NCBI GenBank assembly: GCA_963678705.1
Contig: OY783203.1
Span: 18,210,535-18,274,534 of the forward strand
Direction of reading: 5' to 3'
DNA: 64,000 nt
From: Panorpa germanica
Lineage: Eukaryota; Arthropoda; Insecta; Mecoptera; Panorpidae
Shown here in pieces: positions 15,849 through 55,691 of this stretch. The notes under the pieces are model-generated. The model made no database searches. It was not told where the DNA came from and worked only from the letters and a program-made list of their open reading frames with translations. The stretch's first letter is position 1. Every line of letters starts with the position of its first letter. Both the position numbers and the translations under genes were made by a program.

Positions 15849-16497
15849 TGTTAATAAATGCATGCAATATTCATATTTGTATATCAATATCTTGCTTTTA
15901 TTTTTAATTAATGTTAGAATTAAGATTTCTTTCTCTCAATTCATTTATATTTTATACCCAGTTGTTTTATATACACTGCTCTCTGTGGGCAAAGCATAAT
16001 ATTTCTTATGTAAACATCCTTTGTTTTACGATTCACTTCTACTAGGCTTCGACACTACGCATTTGGTCCTAATTCGTTCTTATCGCTTCAACACTCAAAC
16101 CTACAGCACGCCTAACTTTTTGGTGCATAAACATAAAATAATAATTACACATATTTTTATTTATAACTTAAACCGCGAGTTACATTTACCTAGTGTCGTA
16201 ACTAGTATTCTTATTAACTAAAATATTTAATCAATTTATATGTAATTCAATAGTGTAGTTTAAAATAAATGTAATCTAAAAAAGTTCTGATGTTTTGCTG
16301 TGTCTTTTGATATAAATAAAAAATTGCTATTAATTACTAAATAGCTAAAAGGTCTTTCATAACAAAATTGTGCGCCCACTAAGCTATTGAAAGGAACTGA
16401 GCGACATTTGCCGTTCGAGAACTTGGATACCGCCGACAGATCGCAGATACGCCCTAACCAGCCTATAGATCTCTATAAGGTCCAAACTCCACAACCA
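15849..16497 (+). mobile_element. solo LTR, copy 1
   Basis: A 649-bp block begins TGTTAATAAATG and ends ACTCCACAACCA, the TG...CA ends of an LTR. It is flanked by a perfect 5-bp duplication, ACCAT (15844-15848 and 16498-16502). The same sequence occurs inverted at 49487-50120 with its own different duplication. No internal region adjoins either copy, so both are solo LTRs left by recombination. The parent family (Gypsy, Copia or BEL) cannot be told from the LTR alone. Visible divergence between the two suggests they are not recent. Confidence 0.82.
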
Positions 16498-16555
16498 ACC
16501 ATGATATTAACATATTTAGGCTGCATTTTTTTTTAAATTTCTTTCTCTCTTGCAG

Positions 16556-18745: not shown

Positions 18746-20414
18746 AAACCAATACAACTGTGCTTTGATTTAAAGGCGTTAGAGGTTATAGAAATTATAG
18801 GAGGCTAGAATTTAATTTGAACTGTGTCAACTAAGAATCCTGTTCCACCTTAATATCACACCAAGAACAGGTTTCAACTACTAAAATGTAAAATGTTGTA
18901 AAATAGAAAAATAAAGATTAACTCCGAATGATTAAGCATTCTGATCTTGCAATTTGTTTTTTACTTTCAATATTAAATATACTATACAACGAGACATATA
19001 ATTTTGTAACACGTCTTGAACAATATACGAGCGAATAAGAACAGAACAGCTTTCAAGTTACAAAACATCTACAGAACGGATTGGGACTCCCATAGTGCCT
19101 TAGTTACATCGGAGCTTAATGGTTTCTTTTTACTAATGGACGAGTACATGGTCTTTTAGACTTCTGGATGGTAAAACAAGGCGTTGAAACGACCGATGTT
19201 AAAGACCAAATGACTGTCAACTTGACAGTATTGTTTTTGTGTGTTGGATTAAACTTTGCTAATGCGGTTGTGGTTGTAGGATGCTGGTTGAGAACGTGGT
19301 CACTCTGGTGCTGTATTTGAGTTTAGTTAAGGCTGGGGATACTCTTACAATGAAGGTGTTGTATGGGATGTATCTTGTAGATAATACCATGGCTTGAAAG
19401 GTCATTTGTACACTTGCACAATAAACGTGCATTTGCTTTTGTGCAATATGGTGTATTGTGAATGAATAATTGTCTTCACGATTCCGTTCCTCCCTCTTTT
19501 CAAACCGTCAGAGTGGCATATTGATGTTGACTGTAGATGCTTCTCTAATGAAATTATAAATAGATATATGCCGTACTTTCTTATATACTCGCAAAACATG
19601 AATGTTACTTAATGCCTCGTACAGATCATTCATAAGTTGACATGAGTGTACTAAATGTGTTGTACTATTAACGTACAGACTAGTGCGACATAAACATGCG
19701 ACAATAATAAAACCCTTACTTATGCTACTTTAAAAAATTCTAGGTAGTATTTTTATGAAACAAAAATGTTTCAATACAAAAGGGTCGAGTACCTACTTAG
19801 TCTCTAGTATAATCTCATTGTGCCTTAAGGTTTTTTTCAGTTGTGTTCAGTAAACAAATAAAAATAATTGAAAATGGTGTTTAAATGGACAAATGAAATA
19901 GACCTGAACTTCACGACTTCTTTTTGTAAGTATTTTTTTTTTCTAAAACAAGTTGAAGGATATACTTCATACTTAACTTTCTTTGATATATTACTTAACC
20001 TAGTAATATTAAATCAGAAATGGTCTTATCTTATCTTAAGATTTGATAATCCAAGGTATTTTTAGGTTTAAAAGCTGTCAGGTAACTTTTGTTATATTAG
20101 ATAAATCTTAAATGCACGTAACTGAGTTTAGCGGGATATTACGTTGTACGCAGTTGTATATCTTCGCAGTATTTCTAATGCTTTGTACGAATCGGCATTG
20201 TAAGAACTCTCACATCACATATTAAAATCTAGTGGAATGGTTTGAAGGCAAAAACATGTAAAGTGCTAGAATAAATAAATCCCCTTAATTAAGACGCTTT
20301 TAAAAATCATAAATAAATTGAAAACTTTATAAAAACTGAAAATTTTATACAAAAAATGATAAATTACTAATGAAGCTTATGTATTTATTATTTAAATGTA
20401 AAAAATTCTATCAG
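18746..20414. other. unannotated, probably intron
   Basis: No repeat or gene supported. A frame of about 72 codons at 19130-19350 contains a hydrophobic run (MTVNLTVLFLCVGLNF) but lacks splice signals in keeping with an exon, so I do not call it. Confidence 0.45.
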
Positions 20415-20560
20415 ACTCACCGTCGGGGGTTTAGGGATTATGGTCCTTGCCCTCTGCACCCTGCACCTTGTTTCCTGCTCCATGTTCGCCGCTCGTCAAG
20501 GTGTGGTTCACAGAGAAAAGCACGGAAGGTACAAAACGACGAAAGCAAATAACGATACAG
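20415..20560 (+). CDS. exon encoding TM segment of collagen-like membrane protein
   Basis: The exon follows an AG acceptor (TTCTATCAG) and ends in CAG/GTAACG. Its open frame reads LTVGGLGIMVLALCTLHLVS then CSMFAARQGVVHREKHGR and YKTTKANNDTG: a hydrophobic membrane-spanning segment (about 22 residues) followed by a basic, protease-site-like juxtamembrane stretch. The block is much richer in G/C at third positions than its surroundings, as expected of a constrained exon. The last base is a G that, joined to the next exon candidate, makes a glycine codon and starts Gly-X-Y repeats. The order TM, basic linker, collagen triplets fits type II membrane proteins such as collagen XIII/XXV-like chains, colmedin/gliomedin, or EDA-like TNF ligands. 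The N-terminal cytoplasmic exon was not found. Exon reality is moderately supported; the exact family is inference. Confidence 0.52.
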
Positions 20561-20612
20561 GTAACGGATACGTGTTAATGTCTAATGTGCTCCGTTGTCC
20601 GACGTTCACCAG

Positions 20613-20643
20613 GTTCACCAGGTCCACCAGGCCCGCATGGATG
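20613..20643 (+). CDS. short exon with Gly-X-Y triplets
   Basis: After a 52-nt gap that has intron features (GTAACG donor, TTAAT/CTAAT branch-like motifs, pyrimidine-rich end, TTCACCAG acceptor), the sequence GTTCACCAGGTCCACCAGGC joins in phase to give G-S-P, G-P-P, G-P-H, G: three collagen triplets. The next possible donor is ATG/GTGATT at 20644; reading through instead reaches a stop. The nine-base near-repeats TTCACCAGG are typical of collagen exons. An alternative acceptor nine bases downstream (exon from 20622) would keep the frame. At 31 nt the exon is very short, and no further collagen exon was found in the window. Confidence 0.45.
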
Positions 20644-20781
20644 GTGATTCAACAAAAGTATATTGAAAACTAGGTATTATATATTGGTGCTTAGTAATAA
20701 GCAAATGTATAGTTTATAGGGACACTAAAACTAAGAAATGACACATTAATCATCCTTTCAAAATAATAATTTCAAACTTAT

Positions 20782-23164: not shown

Positions 23165-24163
23165 TTAAAAAATTATATAGAAGAATGGAAAAAAATTATT
23201 TGGGAAAGAGAGATACCTGAATACATACGAGAAAATGAGACAAGGAACATAAGAAGAATCGAAATATTAAAAACGAAGAAAAAGCCAGCAAAACCATACT
23301 TAAACCGATATGGTCATATGGTATACAACTATGGGGTACTGCATCTACCTCAAATATTGAGATACTCCAAAGATTTCAGTCCAAAATGCTAAGGATTGTC
23401 ACGAATGCACCATGGTTCATACCTAATCACATAATACATCGAGACCTGGATATACCTACAGTAAAAGAAGAAATAGTTCTTAGAACCAAAGTATACAAGG
23501 AGAGAATAATAGAACATCCAAACAATTTGGCCAGCTGTCAATATTTCCACAGTACGCAGGCTGAAAAAGAAGGTACCTCAGGACCTACTAGCTAAATAAA
23601 CAGAATCTAGGATCTATTAAAATTGAGGGATGAGTCGATGGGCATATCCCGCGCAAGACATTTTATTTTGACATACCTATCACTGAATGTCCTATAGGCA
23701 GGACAGATTGTAATAATCTTTAGTAATCAAAAAAAAAAGATACTGGGAAAGTAGAGGAAAGGAAGTGCAGGGTGTGCTGGAAAGAGATAGAAACGCTAAA
23801 GCACATTAAGTATTCATGTGAGGAAAGAGTAAAAAGTGAAAGAAGATTGTGAAGTTATTAAAGGGTGGCAGAGAAGGGAAGAGATAGCGGAGAGAGATGA
23901 CGGAGATATATAAAAGGAGCGAGGAAAGAGAAGGAAGGGCAGAGTAGAAAAGGAGGGAGAGTAGCAAGAAGAAAGAGGCACTAGGAGTTTAAATTTATCT
24001 ATCTTGTTTATATTTTTCTTTTCGAAGGAGTTAGAATGGGTAGATAGGATAAGGATCACAAAATTTAATTAACCACAATGACATGTAATTTAATGATTTA
24101 AGGCGGAAGAATGTAGTGCCTAATGGCAAAAACATTACAATAAAAATAATAATAATAATATAT
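23165..24163 (+). pseudogene. LINE-B fragment split by a Jockey insertion
   Basis: Two pieces of one LINE flank a Jockey fragment. The left piece (23165-23283) reads IIWEREIPEYIRENETRNIR. The right piece (23739-24163) resumes at RYW, reaches CRVCWKEIETLKHI (CCHC knuckle start), then 3' UTR sequence containing GCGGAAGAATGTAGTGCCTA and an AATAATAATAAT tail. The pieces pick up within a few residues of each other when compared with the copy at 37873. Frameshifts in both pieces show it is dead. Confidence 0.78.
23284..23738 (+). pseudogene. Jockey-clade LINE 3' end, nested
   Basis: The frame KTILKPIWSYGIQLWGTAST then NIEILQRFQSKMLRIVTNAP, WF and HRDLDIPTVKEEI is the well-conserved C-terminal part of Jockey-clade ORF2, just after the reverse transcriptase core. 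A later frame gives RLKKKVPQDLLAK then a stop, the normal ORF2 end. A short 3' UTR and an A10 run (23729-23738) follow. It is 5'-truncated, as usual for LINE insertions, with at least one frameshift in the coding part. It sits inside the LINE-B copy and is therefore younger than it. Confidence 0.84.
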
Positions 24164-25045
24164 AATTTGCGCAAGTTTGAAGTCCCAATTTACCACTGTT
24201 GCATGCATTTGACTTTGTGTGTTTCCTATAGGCCCTTTTTCCTAAGCCTTTTAGCATATTACAATTCACTAGTTTATATATATACTCTGTGTGTATCTGT
24301 GTGTATAGATGTGTGTGTAAATTAATGCATTATGAAAATAGTGAGGTTTTATGGAAAGCACTTACAGCGTGGAAAACAACCCCCTGCGATGTTGCGGTGC
24401 GGCGGATCCACATGTGGTAGCTGGGACCACGTGATGGGAGCAACCCACATATTAAAAGCTGTTTTACTTAGCTATACGGCCCTAAGAGATGTACTTAATG
24501 ACCTTAAATCAATATTTCTATTTATGTTATACATTTACTTAAAGTGAAAGTTTTTAGTACAATTAATCAAGGATTCATTAGAATCATTAATTAGAACGAT
24601 TAGAATGTCTTTGTCATCTCAATGTGAGTTTGCAATTAAGGGTATTTATTCATGGATAACTACAACAAGAGTTGGAGAAATTATTTTCGGAAAATATTAA
24701 AATAATTTTAGCTAAATAAATTGTATAAAATATTTTAGAGAATGTAGTTCAAAGTAACCGGATTATTTTTTTAAAAGGTGCAAGCTATTAGATGTGTCTC
24801 TAATTGAAGAGTTAGTTTTCTAGGGAGTGCAGTAGGTTCATTTTAATCATATTTCATTAGGTTTAACTACTTGGAATTAAATTTCCATTCAACGAAATTT
24901 TAAAATATTTCTGAATATGTATTCTTCTAAAATACATTTCTAAATATAACTATGAGGTACAATGTAACAATGTTAGTAGCGATTATTTTTTATAAATTAT
25001 GAAAAATCTGAGTAGTTAGAAAGTACTGGTTATAGTCCAAGATCC
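24164..25045. other. unannotated stretch
   Basis: No gene. A TG-rich microsatellite-like run lies at 24285-24320. At 24405-24440, CCACATGTGG and CCACGTGATGG provide two E-box palindromes in a locally GC-rich patch; function unknown. Confidence 0.45.
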
Positions 25046-32742: not shown

Positions 32743-33183
32743 AAACTTAGATATGTTTAAACAAAAAACACACATACATCTAACATTATAATAGCGTTGA
32801 ATATTCAGTTTACTTGCAGTAAGTAAAAACCTTCAGAGATGCGATGGAGGGTCAACATAATATGAATATATTATTTAAAGAGCTTTTTGAAATTCCATGC
32901 TACATTACCTTCAACATTGTACGTTATATCATTCTACTTGATTCATTCCAGATCGTTCGTTTTGTAAAATGTATTTTAATTATTTTCATTTTTATGGCAT
33001 TTCAAAAATCTTAAACAGCACTGCCTTCGGCTTATAAACCTTACGGAATTTCACTCGATTATAGGGACATTGTAATCAGTGACTAGACCGATGACAAATA
33101 AGCCACGAATTAAAGGAACCTCTCGAAGAACCAGCAGCTGTGGAATTTGGAAACTGGAAATTAATTATGACGTATATATCCTT
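32743..33183. other. unannotated stretch
   Basis: Nothing recognised between the palindrome and the satellite array. Confidence 0.5.
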
Positions 33184-33868
33184 TTAAAATCCAAAATAGT
33201 TTAGATATTTCAATTTTTTTAAGTTCGTCTTCTTAAATATAAATGGATATAACTGCATCAAAAAGTATTATGAAATCAATAATTTCTCTTTTTTTTTAAA
33301 AAGTCTTTAAATTTTTAGAACCCCTTATAAAATCGAAAATAGTAGAGATATTTTAAATTTCTTAACGCAGTTCGTTTTCTTAAATATAAATGAATATAAC
33401 TACATAAAAAAATATTAATAAATTAATAATTTTTCTTTGTGAAAAAAAGTCCATGAATTTTTAGAACCACTTATAAAATAAAAAATAGTTAGGATATTTC
33501 AAATTTTTTAACGCAATTCATCTTCTTAAATATAAATGAATATAACTGCATTAAAAAATATTAAGAAATAAATAACTTTTCTTTTTGAAAAAAAGTCCAT
33601 GAATTTTTAGAACCCATTATAAAATCCAAAATAGTTCAGATATTTCAAATTTGTAAACATAGTTCGTCTTACTAAATATAAATGGATATACTGCATCAAA
33701 AAATATTAAGAAAACAATAACTTTTCTTTTTGAAAAAAAGTTCATGAATTTTTATAACTCCTTATAAATTCCAAAATAGTAAAGATACTTCAAATTTGTT
33801 AACGCAGTTCGTCTTCTTAAATATAAATGGATATAACTGCGTCAAAAAATATTAATAAATCTGATCTG
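33184..33868 (+). repeat. satellite-like array, five ~146-bp units
   Basis: The motif AAATATAAATGGATATAACT and its variants recur with starts of the AAATG(G/A)ATATA block at about 33241, 33388, 33534, 33680 and 33825, that is spacings of 147, 146, 146 and 145. Other landmarks in each unit are AAAATCCAAAATAGT, AACGCAGTTCGTCTTCTTAA, AAAAATATTAA and TCCATGAATTTTTAGAAC. Units are AT-rich and moderately diverged. The first is the most different. Confidence 0.88.
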
Positions 33869-37872: not shown

Positions 37873-38432
37873 ACACAAGAAGCAGAGACAGAGAGATACA
37901 GCAACAGGAAAGAATGGAAAAAATTGATAATATCAAATATAATGTAAGATGCAAGAGCATTTGGGAAAGACAGATACCGAAATACATACGAGAAAAAGAG
38001 ACAAGAAACACAAGAAGATTTTCATCACAAGATTTAGATTGGGAAACGAAGAGAAAGGCAGCAGATACTGGGAAAATAGAGGAGAAAGAATATGCAAGGT
38101 GTGCGGGAGAGATATAGAAACGCTGTGAAGTGAAAAGATGATTGTGCAGTTATTAAAGGTAGGCGTAGTAAGGTGTAGGGAAGAAAAGGAAGGGCAGAGT
38201 AGAAACAGGAGGTAGAGTAACAGGACGAGAGAAGCAGTAGAGGTTTAAAATTATTTGTTTTGTTTTTATTTTTACTTTTGGAAGGGGTGAGAATGGGTAG
38301 ATAGAATAAGGATCACAAATAAAATGTAATTAAGCACAATGATATGAAATTTAATGATTTAATGCGGAAGAACGTAGTGCCTAATGGCAAAAACATTAAA
38401 ATAAAATAATAATTATAATTATTATTATTCAC
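37873..38432 (+). pseudogene. LINE-B 3' fragment with CCHC and tail
   Basis: The frame gives ERMEKIDNIKYNVRCKSIWE then RQIPKYIREKETRNTRR. After a frameshift it continues as RFRLGNEEKGSRYWENRGER and ICKVCGRDIETL, the first half of the CCHC knuckle; the H and last C are lost in a small deletion. 3' UTR (GCGGAAGAACGTAGTGCCTA) and an AATAATTATAATTATTATT tail follow. This is the clearest copy for identifying the family, an I/R1-type LINE. Confidence 0.8.
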
Positions 38433-39630: not shown

Positions 39631-39649
39631 TATGTACTTTACTTATTAT

Positions 39650-39958
39650 TTCTTTTTAATGTTTTTGCTATTGGGCACTACATTCTTCTGCCTTAACTCA
39701 TTAAATTACATATCATTGAGCTTAATTCATCTGTGATCTTGATTATATCTAAATATTCTTAATCCTTCCAAAAGAAAAACAAATCAAGTAAATTAAAGCC
39801 CCTACTGCTTCACTCCTCCTGCTACTCTCCCACCTGTTTCTACTCTGCCATTCCGTCTCTTTCCTCGCTCCTTTTCTCTATCTCCGCCATCCACCACTTC
39901 ACTTCACTGCCTCCCTTTAATAACTGCAGAATATTCTTTTCGCTTCATATGTGCTTTA
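39650..39958 (-). pseudogene. LINE-B 3' fragment, minus strand
   Basis: The minus strand has the family 3' UTR: GCAGAAGAATGTAGTGCCCA, then upstream the purine-rich GGAGATAGAGAAAAGGAGCG and TTATTAAAGGGAGGCAGTGA. No coding frame is retained. It lies 20 bp from the end of MITE G copy 1. Confidence 0.7.
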
Positions 39959-41000: not shown

Positions 41001-41474
41001 CACATTTTTAATATTTCATATATTTTCGATTCCTGCCACATTTTAATATTAAATAATTTTTCTGTTCAGCGTTCGCCTTGTACCGTGGACTGTACCCGCG
41101 GACTGCTGATATTTTTGCATAATAATTTAGCCAGTTTATTATCAACGGAGCCGCCTCGACTTGTTACTCGTAGCTAAATTCTAATGTTTTGTGTTACGTA
41201 ATGTTTAGACGTTATATAAACAGATACTAATTAAAATACGAAGCGATACGATATGTTATAGATACACATATAAATTACAAATTAATTAAAACTGTATAAA
41301 TAATTACCACACATTTTATGACGGTATTGCGTCAAATGAAACCTTCCAGTTACAATACAATAACTAACCGTTTCTCAATTTAGGCTTCGATGTTGATTCA
41401 TTCAGTTTTATATTTTTACTTTTATTGAAAATATTTTATCTTAACCTCAACCACTTTGATAAAGTGGTATACAT

Positions 41475-41737
41475 TATTATTATTATTATTTTATTGGAAT
41501 TATTTGCTATTAGGCACTACATTCTTCCGCCTTAAATCATTGAATTAAATATCATTGTGTTTAATTATATCTACCCATTTTCACTCCTTCCCAAATAAAC
41601 AATAAAAATACAAACAAAACAGATAAATTTAAACCGCTTTCTCACTTTTTTCTACTCTCCTTGTAGAAAAACTCTGCCCTTCTCTCTGTCTCCGCCATCC
41701 ACCGCTTCCTTCACTTTTCACTTTTTACTCTTTTCTC
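41475..41737 (-). pseudogene. LINE-B 3' fragment with 17-bp target duplication
   Basis: The minus strand has the LINE-B 3' UTR (GCGGAAGAATGTAGTGCCTA) and an ATT-repeat tail at the left edge. It is flanked by GATAAAGTGGTATACAT (41458-41474) and GATAAAGTGGAATACAT (41738-41754), a 17-bp target duplication with one mismatch. This shows that the 5'-truncated, roughly 260-bp copy is a complete insertion product of target-primed reverse transcription. Confidence 0.85.
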
Positions 41738-49481: not shown

Positions 49482-49486
49482 CTGGG

Positions 49487-50120
49487 TGTTTGTGGAGTTT
49501 GGACCTTATAGAGATCTATAGGCTGGCTAGGGCGTATCTGCAATCCTTTGGCGGTATCCAAATTCTCGAACGGCAAATGTCGCTCAGTTCCTATCAATAG
49601 CTTAGTGGGCGCACAATTTTGTTATAAAGGACCTTTTAGCTATTAAGCAATTAATAGCAATTTTTTATTTATATCAAAAGACACAGCAAAACCTCAGAAC
49701 TTTATTAGATTACATTTATTTTAAAACTACACTATTGAATTTACATATAAATTGATTAAATATTTTAGTTAATAAGAATACTAATTACGACACTAAGTAA
49801 ATGTAAGTCGCGGTTTAAGTTATAAATAAAAATATGTGTATTTTTTATTTTATGTAAATGCACCAAATGGTTAAGCGTGCTGTAGGTTTGAGTGCTGAAG
49901 CAATAAGAACGAATTAGGACCAAATACGTAGTGTCGAAGCCTAGTAGAAGTGGATCGTAAAACAAAGGATGTTTACATAAGAAATATTATGGTTTGCCCA
50001 CAGAGAGCAGTGTATATAAAAACAAATAGGCATAAAATATAAATGAATTGAGACAAAGAAATCTTAATTCTAACATTAATTAAAAATAAAAGCAAGATGT
50101 AATAAAAGCATTTATTAACA
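49487..50120 (-). mobile_element. solo LTR, copy 2
   Basis: This is the inverted counterpart of 15849-16497: on the minus strand it starts TGTTAATAAATG and ends ACTCCACAAACA. The flanks are a perfect 5-bp duplication, CTGGG on the plus strand (49482-49486 and 50121-50125). It is a solo LTR with no internal sequence, from the same unnamed LTR-retrotransposon family. Similar lengths (634 and 649 bp) indicate that little has been lost since insertion. Confidence 0.84.
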
Positions 50121-50125
50121 CTGGG

Positions 50126-50874
50126 TTTGCACCAATTCCCGTGGCCGGTACTCTATATACGGAGTATGGAGTGTATAGTGAAACTGGTTATTGTAAATAA
50201 AAGTTTAGCTGGTGAAGACGTGCCATAACAACACCCTGGCAGTCACAGTGTACAGTGTACACACACCATTAAACAAAAAGCTATCTCACTTTAACCAACA
50301 CTAACGAATAAATGGATATTTTTATTAACCCTTTTCTCGGTGTAGGTAGATCATCAAACTGTTAAGAATTGTAACTGACTTTTATAATAGTTTTTTTCAT
50401 GGTGAGGGAGTGATGGAGAGAAAGAGGACTATTCCCCTGATATCACAGATTCCACCTGCTATTTCAACTCGTCTGATGTCATTCTCTGGTTTAATTGTAT
50501 AGTTACTGACCGTAAATACGAAATTAAATTTGTGGAAGAAGTTTATAGAGAAGAAAATGTGTTTGTGGGAAGAAAAGGTGTCTTAAGTTCTAAGTTCTAA
50601 GTGAAAATAATAGTGGAGCAGCAAACCACAAGATTCTACTTATTTGACTAATTTCTAACATGAAACTTTTCACGTTTGTTATTTTTATTATAGTGACTGA
50701 CAAAATGTATAAACGGACAAAAGGCAGAGCTGGCTGGGATCTCTGTAGGTCTCGCATCGCTCGCTGATTTTCCAAATAAAAAATATTTCCATTTAAATAT
50801 TATCACTTAACAATTAGTGCACATTTTTCATGATAAAATAATAACATATTTTATCTTAATATTTAAATTATATT
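50126..50874. other. unannotated stretch
   Basis: Nothing recognised; a repeated GTACAC/GTGTACAC cluster near 50250-50265. Confidence 0.45.
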
Positions 50875-51535
50875 ATTATTATTTTATTTTAATGTTGCCA
50901 TTTGGTACTACATTCTTGCGCCTTAACACATTTATTTGCATGTCATTGTGCTTAATTCAATTTTGATCCTTATTAAATCTAAACATTCTCACTCCTTCCA
51001 AACGAAAAAAAAAATATAAATTTATCCTTATAAAAATAAAAACAAAACTGCTACTGCTACTGCTTCACTCCTTCTGCTACTCTCCCTCCTGTTTCTACTC
51101 TGCCATTCCTTCTCTTTCCTCGTTCCTTTTCTCTATCTCCGCCATCCACCTCTTCCCTTCACTGCCTCCCTTTAATAACTGTACAATATTCTCTTCGCTT
51201 ATTACATTTTTCTAACATGAAAACTTAATGAGGTCCGATGTTTATATCTCCGTTCTACACACTCTGTACATCCTTTCTCGCTATTTGCCCAGTATCTGTT
51301 TCCTTTCTCCTCGTTTCCCAATCTAAATCTGGCAATCCTTCTCATGTGTTTTGTGTCTTTTTCTCTTAAGTATTGTGATATCTCACTCTCTCAAATCCTT
51401 TTATATATTTTGTTATAGTTGCTCTTCTTAATTTTTTCCATTCTTTCCTGTCATTGTATCTCCCTGTCTCTTTTCCTTAGCTCCTCTTCCACACTTGTGC
51501 CTTCTTCTCTTCTTCTACCTGACTCCTCTGTCGCG
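50875..51535 (-). pseudogene. LINE-B 3' fragment, minus strand, long copy
   Basis: The minus strand runs from the charged region (GAAGAGGAGCTAAGGAAAAG, CAGGGAGATACAATGACAGG) through the IWE-type segment and RLGNEE-like TTAGATTGGGAAACGAGGAG, the RYW region AACAGATACTGGGCAAATAG, to the 3' UTR GCGCAAGAATGTAGTACCAA and an AATAAT tail at the left edge. It retains more of the ORF2 C-terminal region than most copies but has frameshifts. Confidence 0.76.
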
Positions 51536-52350: not shown

Positions 52351-53392
52351 GTAGCCGTGTGAACTGAAGCACGTAGTTGCCCATGATTATTTATTTAATT
52401 TTTATTTTTTTCGTTTCATGAAACATTATAAGTTTTATGTGACATTTTGAAACATCCTCTTGTTATATTTAATTTGGAGTTTTCTCGTGGTACAAGCTTA
52501 ACAATACATTTTACATTTTACATTTTACAAATGCGGTTTATAATTTCAAAATGAATATAATTGTTAATGTACCGTTATGTTACCACAAGTTACCAGAACA
52601 AACAGAATTGTTAATCCACAGATTATAAGGGTATTTCTATCGGATTACACCAAATATTGTTGTGTTGTTGGAGTGTTGGAGTGTTGAACTGAATATAGTC
52701 ACTCGTACTCGTACTCGTATATTCAACAATTGGATGAAATTGTATACAAACATAATCTAAAATAGATGGCAGGAGAATTTAACAATTGAAGAACTTTATC
52801 ACATTATACACCAACGTGTTGGTGCTACAGGCACAGGTATTAGGTGATACCACAACCACGCATTGTGTGCCAGATTATTTTTGACGTGTCAACTGCTCCT
52901 CCTCCTCCTACCCTTGCTACCATCTCCACATATGTTTGCCTGGGAATAATGGGACTCGAGGTAAAGCTTTTAAATTGAATTGTGAGTGTTCCGAAGCGGA
53001 AAGGGAATACTCAGACTGCGAGACAGCTCAGAACCCAGAACTCAGGTCTTGTAAGATTTTAGAATGTAATATGGAGTACGACCTACGTAAAACTTTTTAG
53101 AAAGAACGTGGCGTCTCCCAATAGGCAGTTTTTCACCAAATTAAAATATCACATATTCGGCGGGCTCCTGTACAGGGAACCTGGATCCAGATGAGAGCAA
53201 CTTCATAACCTTTGACAGTATGCAATATAATATCTTTATTTAAAAGTGTATATTATTATTACAATTAACTAGCGCTTGCCTCGTCGCAAAGAAACGCTTA
53301 CTTCAGATAGCTTAATTATATTATTTAATTATAATTTTAATTCAGCAGCTTAATTTTATATTTTAATTATATTTTTAAATTAAAATATTATA
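52351..53392. other. unannotated stretch
   Basis: No gene. Small simple repeats: GTTGGAGTGTTGGAGTGTTG at about 52668, CTCGTACTCGTACTCGTA at about 52701 and CTCCTCCTCCTCCTA at about 52892. Confidence 0.45.

Positions 53393-55602: not shown

Positions 55603-55691
<89 letters not shown>
55603..55691. repeat. TA dinucleotide microsatellite
   Basis: About 40 uninterrupted TA repeats followed by a TATTATATAT break. It starts directly at the CACCCTG terminus, so it probably grew from the TA target site of that element. Confidence 0.95.

What the first reader, a model, noticed from the sequence alone, without database searches (positions are those of the whole stretch)
20415..20643. Split exon pair for a collagen-type membrane protein hidden in repeat-rich DNA
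Seen: a hydrophobic segment plus basic linker in an open, GC3-rich frame, a donor at 20560, a 52-nt gap with acceptor, and a phase-correct continuation into G-S-P, G-P-P, G-P-H. Known: type II membrane collagens, colmedins and EDA-like ligands have this order. Inference: this is the start of the extracellular part of such a gene, with large introns on either side.
Basis: partly seen in the sequence, partly recalled or inferred. Interest (0 to 1): 0.75.

Follow-up and report, generated by a model that had tools for sequence, protein, structure and literature searches.

The report
Possible two-exon collagen gene fragment
A short stretch in AT-rich, repeat-rich DNA looks like two small gene pieces that together would encode a membrane-spanning segment followed by a tiny collagen-like segment; it is probably a real but ordinary gene fragment, and which gene it belongs to cannot be settled here.

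Summary
It holds the only proline-rich run of three Gly-X-Y in six frames of 64 kb. Chance controls are moderately favourable: 0 of 100 simulated windows hold such a run, and 0.6% of shuffles with exon 2 kept give a compatible open frame with a membrane segment. Weak points: only three triplets, resting on a 9-nt tandem repeat; the next codon must be Cys, Trp or stop; the intron is 48% GC; splice-site ranking depends on the background model. No other collagen, olfactomedin or TNF exon was found among 395 ORFs scanned; short exons were not scanned. No relative was found, but no animal collection was available. An in-frame ATG at 20440 makes a cleaved signal peptide possible. Verdict: probable coding exons, family unassigned; MACIT, colmedin or EDA membership is not supported. 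Interest low.

The parts
20415..20560 (+). putative exon A: hydrophobic segment (LTVGGLGIMVLALCTLHLVSCSMFAA) and 22-residue basic linker; ends phase 1 (ACA G|gt)
   Evidence: open frame, 52% GC against a window mean of 32%; KD19 2.12; donor in top 1.4% of 3268 GT with an AT-rich background model, top 3.6% with a uniform one
20440..20442 (+). in-frame ATG, possible start codon giving a signal-peptide reading
   Evidence: A at -3 and G at +4 read
20561..20612 (+). putative 52-nt intron, GT...AG, branch-like CTAAT starting 31 nt before its end
   Evidence: GC 48%, reached by only 8.2% of 52-nt windows, unusual for an intron in this DNA
20613..20643 (+). putative 31-nt exon B: G-S-P G-P-P G-P-H G, then TG|gtgatt (phase 2 out) or, read on, W and stop
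   Evidence: acceptor in top 0.7% of 3308 AG with an AT-rich background, top 17% with a uniform one; outer donor in top 2.9% or 2.0%
20605..20631 (+). 9-nt tandem repeat TTCACCAGG x3 (one mismatch) underlying S-P-G S-P-G P-P-G
   Evidence: one of two period-9 three-copy arrays in the window; exact coordinates read
20501..20612 (+). alternative 112-nt intron from the donor AAG|GTGTGG after 20500, also phase 1, which would drop most of the linker
   Evidence: donor score 4.46 against 3.65 for the 20560 donor, 3.22 against 2.40 with a uniform background; phase read from the sequence

Best explanation
20415-20560 and 20613-20643 are two coding exons, separated by a 52-nt intron, of a gene for a protein with an N-terminal hydrophobic segment, a short basic juxtamembrane linker and the start of a small Gly-X-Y domain. 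Most likely the hydrophobic segment is an uncleaved type II anchor, the linker lies just outside the membrane, and the Gly-X-Y stretch helps three chains trimerise. Shown: the sequence, the phase and the GC-island edges. Inferred: splicing, translation, topology, trimerisation. The family is not assigned.
For: The best GC segment, 20412-20646, nearly coincides with the proposed outer splice sites. It holds the only run of three Gly-X-Y with 3 or more Pro in six frames of the window (seven other runs of three have fewer). 0 of 100 simulated windows and 0 of 5000 island shuffles have one. The GXY frame has a stop (TAA) at 20576-20578 and the first AG after it is the CAG ending at 20612, so if that frame is coding it needs an acceptor there or 9 or 18 nt on, and the one at 20612 gives the right phase for Gly. 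With exon B fixed, 0.6% of shuffles give a compatible open frame of 45 or more codons with a membrane segment. Of 8 other GC islands of 190 nt or more, 0 have a frame open throughout. No overlap with any repeat pair in the window.
Against: Only three triplets, from a 9-nt tandem repeat. The next codon, TGN, would be Cys, Trp or stop. The intron is GC-rich for this DNA. The 20414 acceptor is unremarkable: 32% of AGs score as well, or 12% with a uniform background. With a uniform background 126 of 6202 + strand GT..AG pairs of 45-80 nt reach the summed score. Of the 19 other listed GC islands, 9, all 175 nt or shorter, also have an open frame. The donor after 20500 scores higher than the one used. 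No further collagen exon in the window and no relative found. The minus strand also reads G-G-P G-E-P G-E-R.
Confidence: 0.55

Rival explanations
1. The island is not coding. A GC-rich fragment of unknown origin contains a 9-nt tandem repeat that happens to read G-S-P G-P-P G-P-H and an open frame that happens to be hydrophobic; the splice sites are chance.
For: One search lists 20 GC-rich segments in this window; of the 19 others, 10 have a stop in every frame, so GC richness here does not mean coding. Open frames and G|GT donors are common in shuffles: 71% and 94%. 1.8% of triplicated 9-mers give a GXY run. Splice scores are ordinary with a uniform background.
Against: Needs the membrane segment (0.6-1.7% of shuffles), the GXY run and the phase match together.
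Confidence: 0.27
2. Same two exons, but a secreted protein (this overlaps the best explanation and differs only in topology): translation starts at ATG 20440 and MVLALCTLHLVSC... is a cleaved signal peptide. A small variant ends at the stop after G-P-H-G-W, giving a 51-residue precursor.
For: In-frame ATG with A at -3 and G at +4, hydrophobic core directly after it. The 20414 acceptor is not impressive.
Against: The frame stays hydrophobic upstream of the ATG, and the GC island begins about 25 nt before it, at the AG. No charged residue between Met and the core. No AATAAA or ATTAAA between 20642 and 21116.
Confidence: 0.3
3. One single exon of 229 nt (20415-20643) with no internal intron; the frame reads on as ...DTGNGYVLMSNVLRCPTFTRFTRSTRPAWM and the GXY reading is out of frame.
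For: One + frame is open across the whole island; GC stays high across the supposed intron, 48%.
Against: Leaves the GXY run, the GT..AG pair and their phase agreement to chance; 33% of island shuffles have a frame open throughout anyway.
Confidence: 0.13
4. A decayed or isolated exon pair (pseudogene or gene fragment) rather than part of a working gene; overlaps the best explanation as to origin.
For: No second proline-rich collagen run in about 20 kb upstream or 43 kb downstream; the second exon meets a stop at the third codon after the last full triplet.
Against: Both exons and their splice dinucleotides are intact; long introns are normal in large repeat-rich genomes (recalled).
Confidence: 0.12

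Closest known systems
MACIT collagens (XIII, XXIII, XXV; C. elegans COL-99; Drosophila MACIT, printed CG43342 in PMC4678570; I take it to be the CG42342 of other papers)
   Same: Order hydrophobic segment, non-collagenous spacer, Gly-X-Y; single such genes are reported in insects (PMC4678570, abstract, sections 5 and 6 and passages seen).
   Different: No RXXR furin site in the linker, linker only 22 residues, no further collagen domains and no conserved C-terminal motif found in the window.
Colmedins (gliomedin, UNC-122)
   Same: Type II membrane proteins with collagen repeats (PMC7848082, passages seen).
   Different: No olfactomedin domain matched in the 395 ORFs scanned.
Ectodysplasin A
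   Same: Collagenous type II membrane protein (PMC7848082, passages seen).
   Different: No TNF domain matched in the 395 ORFs scanned. The furin site and long spacer of vertebrate EDA (recalled) are absent.
Secreted short-collagen proteins such as adiponectin and C1q/TNF-related proteins (recalled)
   Same: Signal peptide, short variable stretch, then Gly-X-Y (recalled).
   Different: Only three triplets here; no C1q domain matched in the 395 ORFs scanned.

Membership tests
MACIT | type II transmembrane topology | tested here: inconclusive
   Hydrophobic segment KD19 2.12, but an in-frame ATG at 20440 allows a signal peptide.
MACIT | several interrupted collagen domains in the ectodomain | tested here: not met
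   One run of three triplets; no other proline-rich (GXY)3 in six frames of the window. Exons outside the window, or with fewer than three triplets or few prolines, would be missed.
MACIT | furin site RXXR in the juxtamembrane region | tested here: not met
   No RXXR in the 58 residues; only KHGR.
MACIT | conserved C-terminal region with two Cys | tested here: not met
   Four recalled patterns in six frames gave one hit, a GGCW on the minus strand at 1277 between stop codons. It may lie outside the window.
Colmedin | olfactomedin domain | tested here: not met
   Pfam scan of 245 of 245 + ORFs of 42 aa or more and 150 of 175 - ORFs of 46 aa or more, E up to 0.05 or 1. May lie outside the window or in shorter exons.
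Ectodysplasin A / TNF ligand | TNF homology domain | tested here: not met
   Same scans, same limits.
Any collagen-domain protein | extended Gly-X-Y domain | tested here: inconclusive
   Three full triplets plus Gly; no Pfam collagen match, which so short a stretch could hardly give.
Any expressed spliced gene | transcript spanning the junction | not testable with these tools
   No RNA data; no whole genome held for the window.

The most novel reading that the evidence does not exclude
A membrane collagen-like protein with an unusually short (22-residue) linker lacking a furin site, so that unlike MACITs, colmedins and ectodysplasin it would stay on the cell surface, with alternative donors after 20500 and 20560 removing or adding the linker.
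Probability: 0.1. Interest if true: 0.4.

Novelty: new member of a known kind. Interest (0 to 1): 0.15.

Why it matters
If real it adds one gene model to a repeat-rich genome and shows that small exons can be picked out by GC island, phase and motif together. It would not change understanding of membrane collagens unless the missing furin site and short linker were confirmed.

Tried and rejected
The window's own genome is not held. Pfam and PDB searches of the joined peptide gave nothing meaningful: Melan-A at E 0.16, below its cut-off; two shorter variants, none; no PDB match. The intron-retained frame matched TrkH and DUF7812 at E 0.11 and 0.12, below cut-off. Relatives of the joined peptide were sought in viral contigs (5 pattern matches) and genome contigs (133): none confirmed; neither collection is meant to hold animals, so this says little. 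Pfam scans of 150 + ORFs, 150 - ORFs and 92 + ORFs gave best E-values of 0.0013, 0.0035 and 0.042, none a collagen, olfactomedin, TNF or C1q family, taken as chance. I left out 25 of 175 minus ORFs: 18 in purine-skewed segments, 1 in a pyrimidine-skewed one, 6 others. ORFs below the cut-offs (795 + and 860 -) were not scanned, so a short exon could be missed.

A candidate third exon at 52885-53097 (G-N-N G-T-R G-K-A) was rejected: no AG lies between the preceding stop and that run (read by eye). A minus-strand collagen gene (G-G-P G-E-P G-E-R) was rejected: I saw no good acceptor before it by eye (no minus-strand splice scoring was done at that place), and the reading follows from CCAGG/CCTGG symmetry. 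Splice-site evidence first looked very strong: only this pair of 6202 had both scores so high, with thresholds rounded so that the pair itself dropped out, 2 of 6202 + pairs and 4 of 6836 - pairs reached its summed score. With a uniform background the figures are 126 of 6202 and 132 of 6836, so I do not lean on it. Paper searches: Eiger, collagen, TNF, insect and ectodysplasin together, no paper; olfactomedin and collagen repeat with Drosophila, listing only, nothing usable. PMC6730426 is not held.

Full report
Observation. The sequence at 20415-20643 is as described. A + frame open from 20374 to 20670 carries a hydrophobic segment and a basic linker; a GT follows at 20561; 52 nt later CAG|GTTCACCAGGTCCACCAGGCCCGCATGGATG continues in phase as G-S-P G-P-P G-P-H G. 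The joined peptide has 58 residues.

Is it more than chance? The island has 52.8% GC against a mean of 31.9%; 0.18% of 229-nt windows are as rich, and it is the third strongest GC segment of the window. Its best-fit edges are 20412 and 20646, next to the proposed AG (20413-20414) and GT (20644-20645). Other islands are as rich. Of the 19 others listed, the eight of 190 nt or more have no frame open throughout; of the eleven shorter ones nine do. In six frames of 64 kb one search lists eight runs of three Gly-X-Y, and only one has three or more prolines. Simulated windows gave none such in 100 and island shuffles none in 5000. Because the DNA here is a 9-nt tandem repeat, I also triplicated random 9-mers from ten GC islands: 1.8% gave such a run, against 0.7% for 9-mers from anywhere in the window. 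With the collagen exon fixed and the upstream part shuffled, 94% still had a G|GT donor in range, 25% an open frame of 45 codons, 0.6% also a membrane segment. So the donor is weak evidence, the membrane segment moderate, the Gly-X-Y run the strongest. All of this is after the fact, since the site was picked by eye.

Splice sites. With an AT-rich background the donor ranks in the top 1.4% of 3268 GT, the acceptor in the top 0.7% of 3308 AG, and no other of 6202 + strand pairs of 45-80 nt has both scores as high. With a uniform background the ranks are 3.6% and 17%, and 126 of 6202 pairs reach the summed score. The weight tables are recalled fly-like values, so the truth probably lies between. 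The outer acceptor at 20414 is ordinary; the outer donor at 20643 is in the top 2-3%. A second phase-1 donor after 20500 scores higher than the one after 20560. The intron has a CTAAT 31 nt before its end but is 48% GC.

What it is. The best reading is two coding exons of a protein with an N-terminal hydrophobic segment and a Gly-X-Y start. The second exon allows three full triplets; the only GT between the last triplet and the stop is at 20644, so the next codon would be TGN: Cys, Trp or stop. That is unusual for a long collagen domain (recalled). No other proline-rich collagen run lies in the window, and no olfactomedin, TNF or C1q domain was matched in the 395 ORFs scanned (counts checked). 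Exons shorter than the cut-offs (795 + and 860 - ORFs of 20 aa or more), or outside the window, would be missed.

Comparison. Insects have a MACIT gene; the family is recognised by type II topology, interrupted collagen domains and a conserved C-terminus, with a furin site next to the membrane well conserved (PMC4678570: abstract, sections 5 and 6, and passages). A honey-bee paper names a gene 'collagen alpha chain CG42342-like' (PMC4718678, one passage), and CG42342 is listed among genes of unknown function in part of the larval fly eye (PMC11186242, one passage). PMC4678570 prints CG43342; that this is the same gene is my inference. Colmedins and ectodysplasin are other type II collagenous proteins (PMC7848082, passages). 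The fragment lacks RXXR and has a 22-residue linker, so I do not file it in any of these families. It works like them in outline only.

Limits. No animal genome, proteome or RNA collection was available; the absence of relatives is not evidence. No call tested that the organism is an insect; the Jockey-like wording of an ORF at 23239-23592 is recalled and had no Pfam match. The odds given to the explanations overlap and do not sum to one: the secreted reading shares its exons with the best explanation.

Verdict. Observation confirmed, gene reading probable (about 0.55), family unassigned, ordinary if true.

Noticed in passing
52885-53097 (+): Cys-rich open frame ...CLPGNNGTRGKAFKLNCECSEAEREYSDCETAQNPELRSC...; no Pfam match, only weak PDB matches (best E 0.075); not an exon of this gene in that frame.
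   Followed up: partly
15889-16501 and 49483-50098: Inverted pair of about 615 nt, 94% identical, probably copies of a mobile element.
   Followed up: no
33180-33861: Tandem array of a 146-nt unit, 4.7 copies.
   Followed up: no
23734-24167, 38177-38426, 39639-39945, 41469-41567, 50866-51301: Dispersed family of similar segments on both strands; some lie in strongly skewed, purine- or pyrimidine-rich kilobases.
   Followed up: no
23239-23592 (+): Open frame that by recall looks like the end of a Jockey-type reverse transcriptase; no Pfam match and only chance-level PDB matches.
   Followed up: partly
one of the 150 minus-strand ORFs, not traced to its coordinates: Weak Pfam match to TNP-like_GBD, a transposase insertion domain (E 0.0038); possibly a transposon remnant.
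   Followed up: no
55603-55691: TA dinucleotide repeat, 45 copies.
   Followed up: no
20382-20388 and 20411-20416: A TATA-like TATTTAT begins 31 nt before the A of an initiator-like TCAGAC, just where the island begins; this could mean a transcription start rather than a splice acceptor at 20414. Read by eye, not tested against chance.
   Followed up: no
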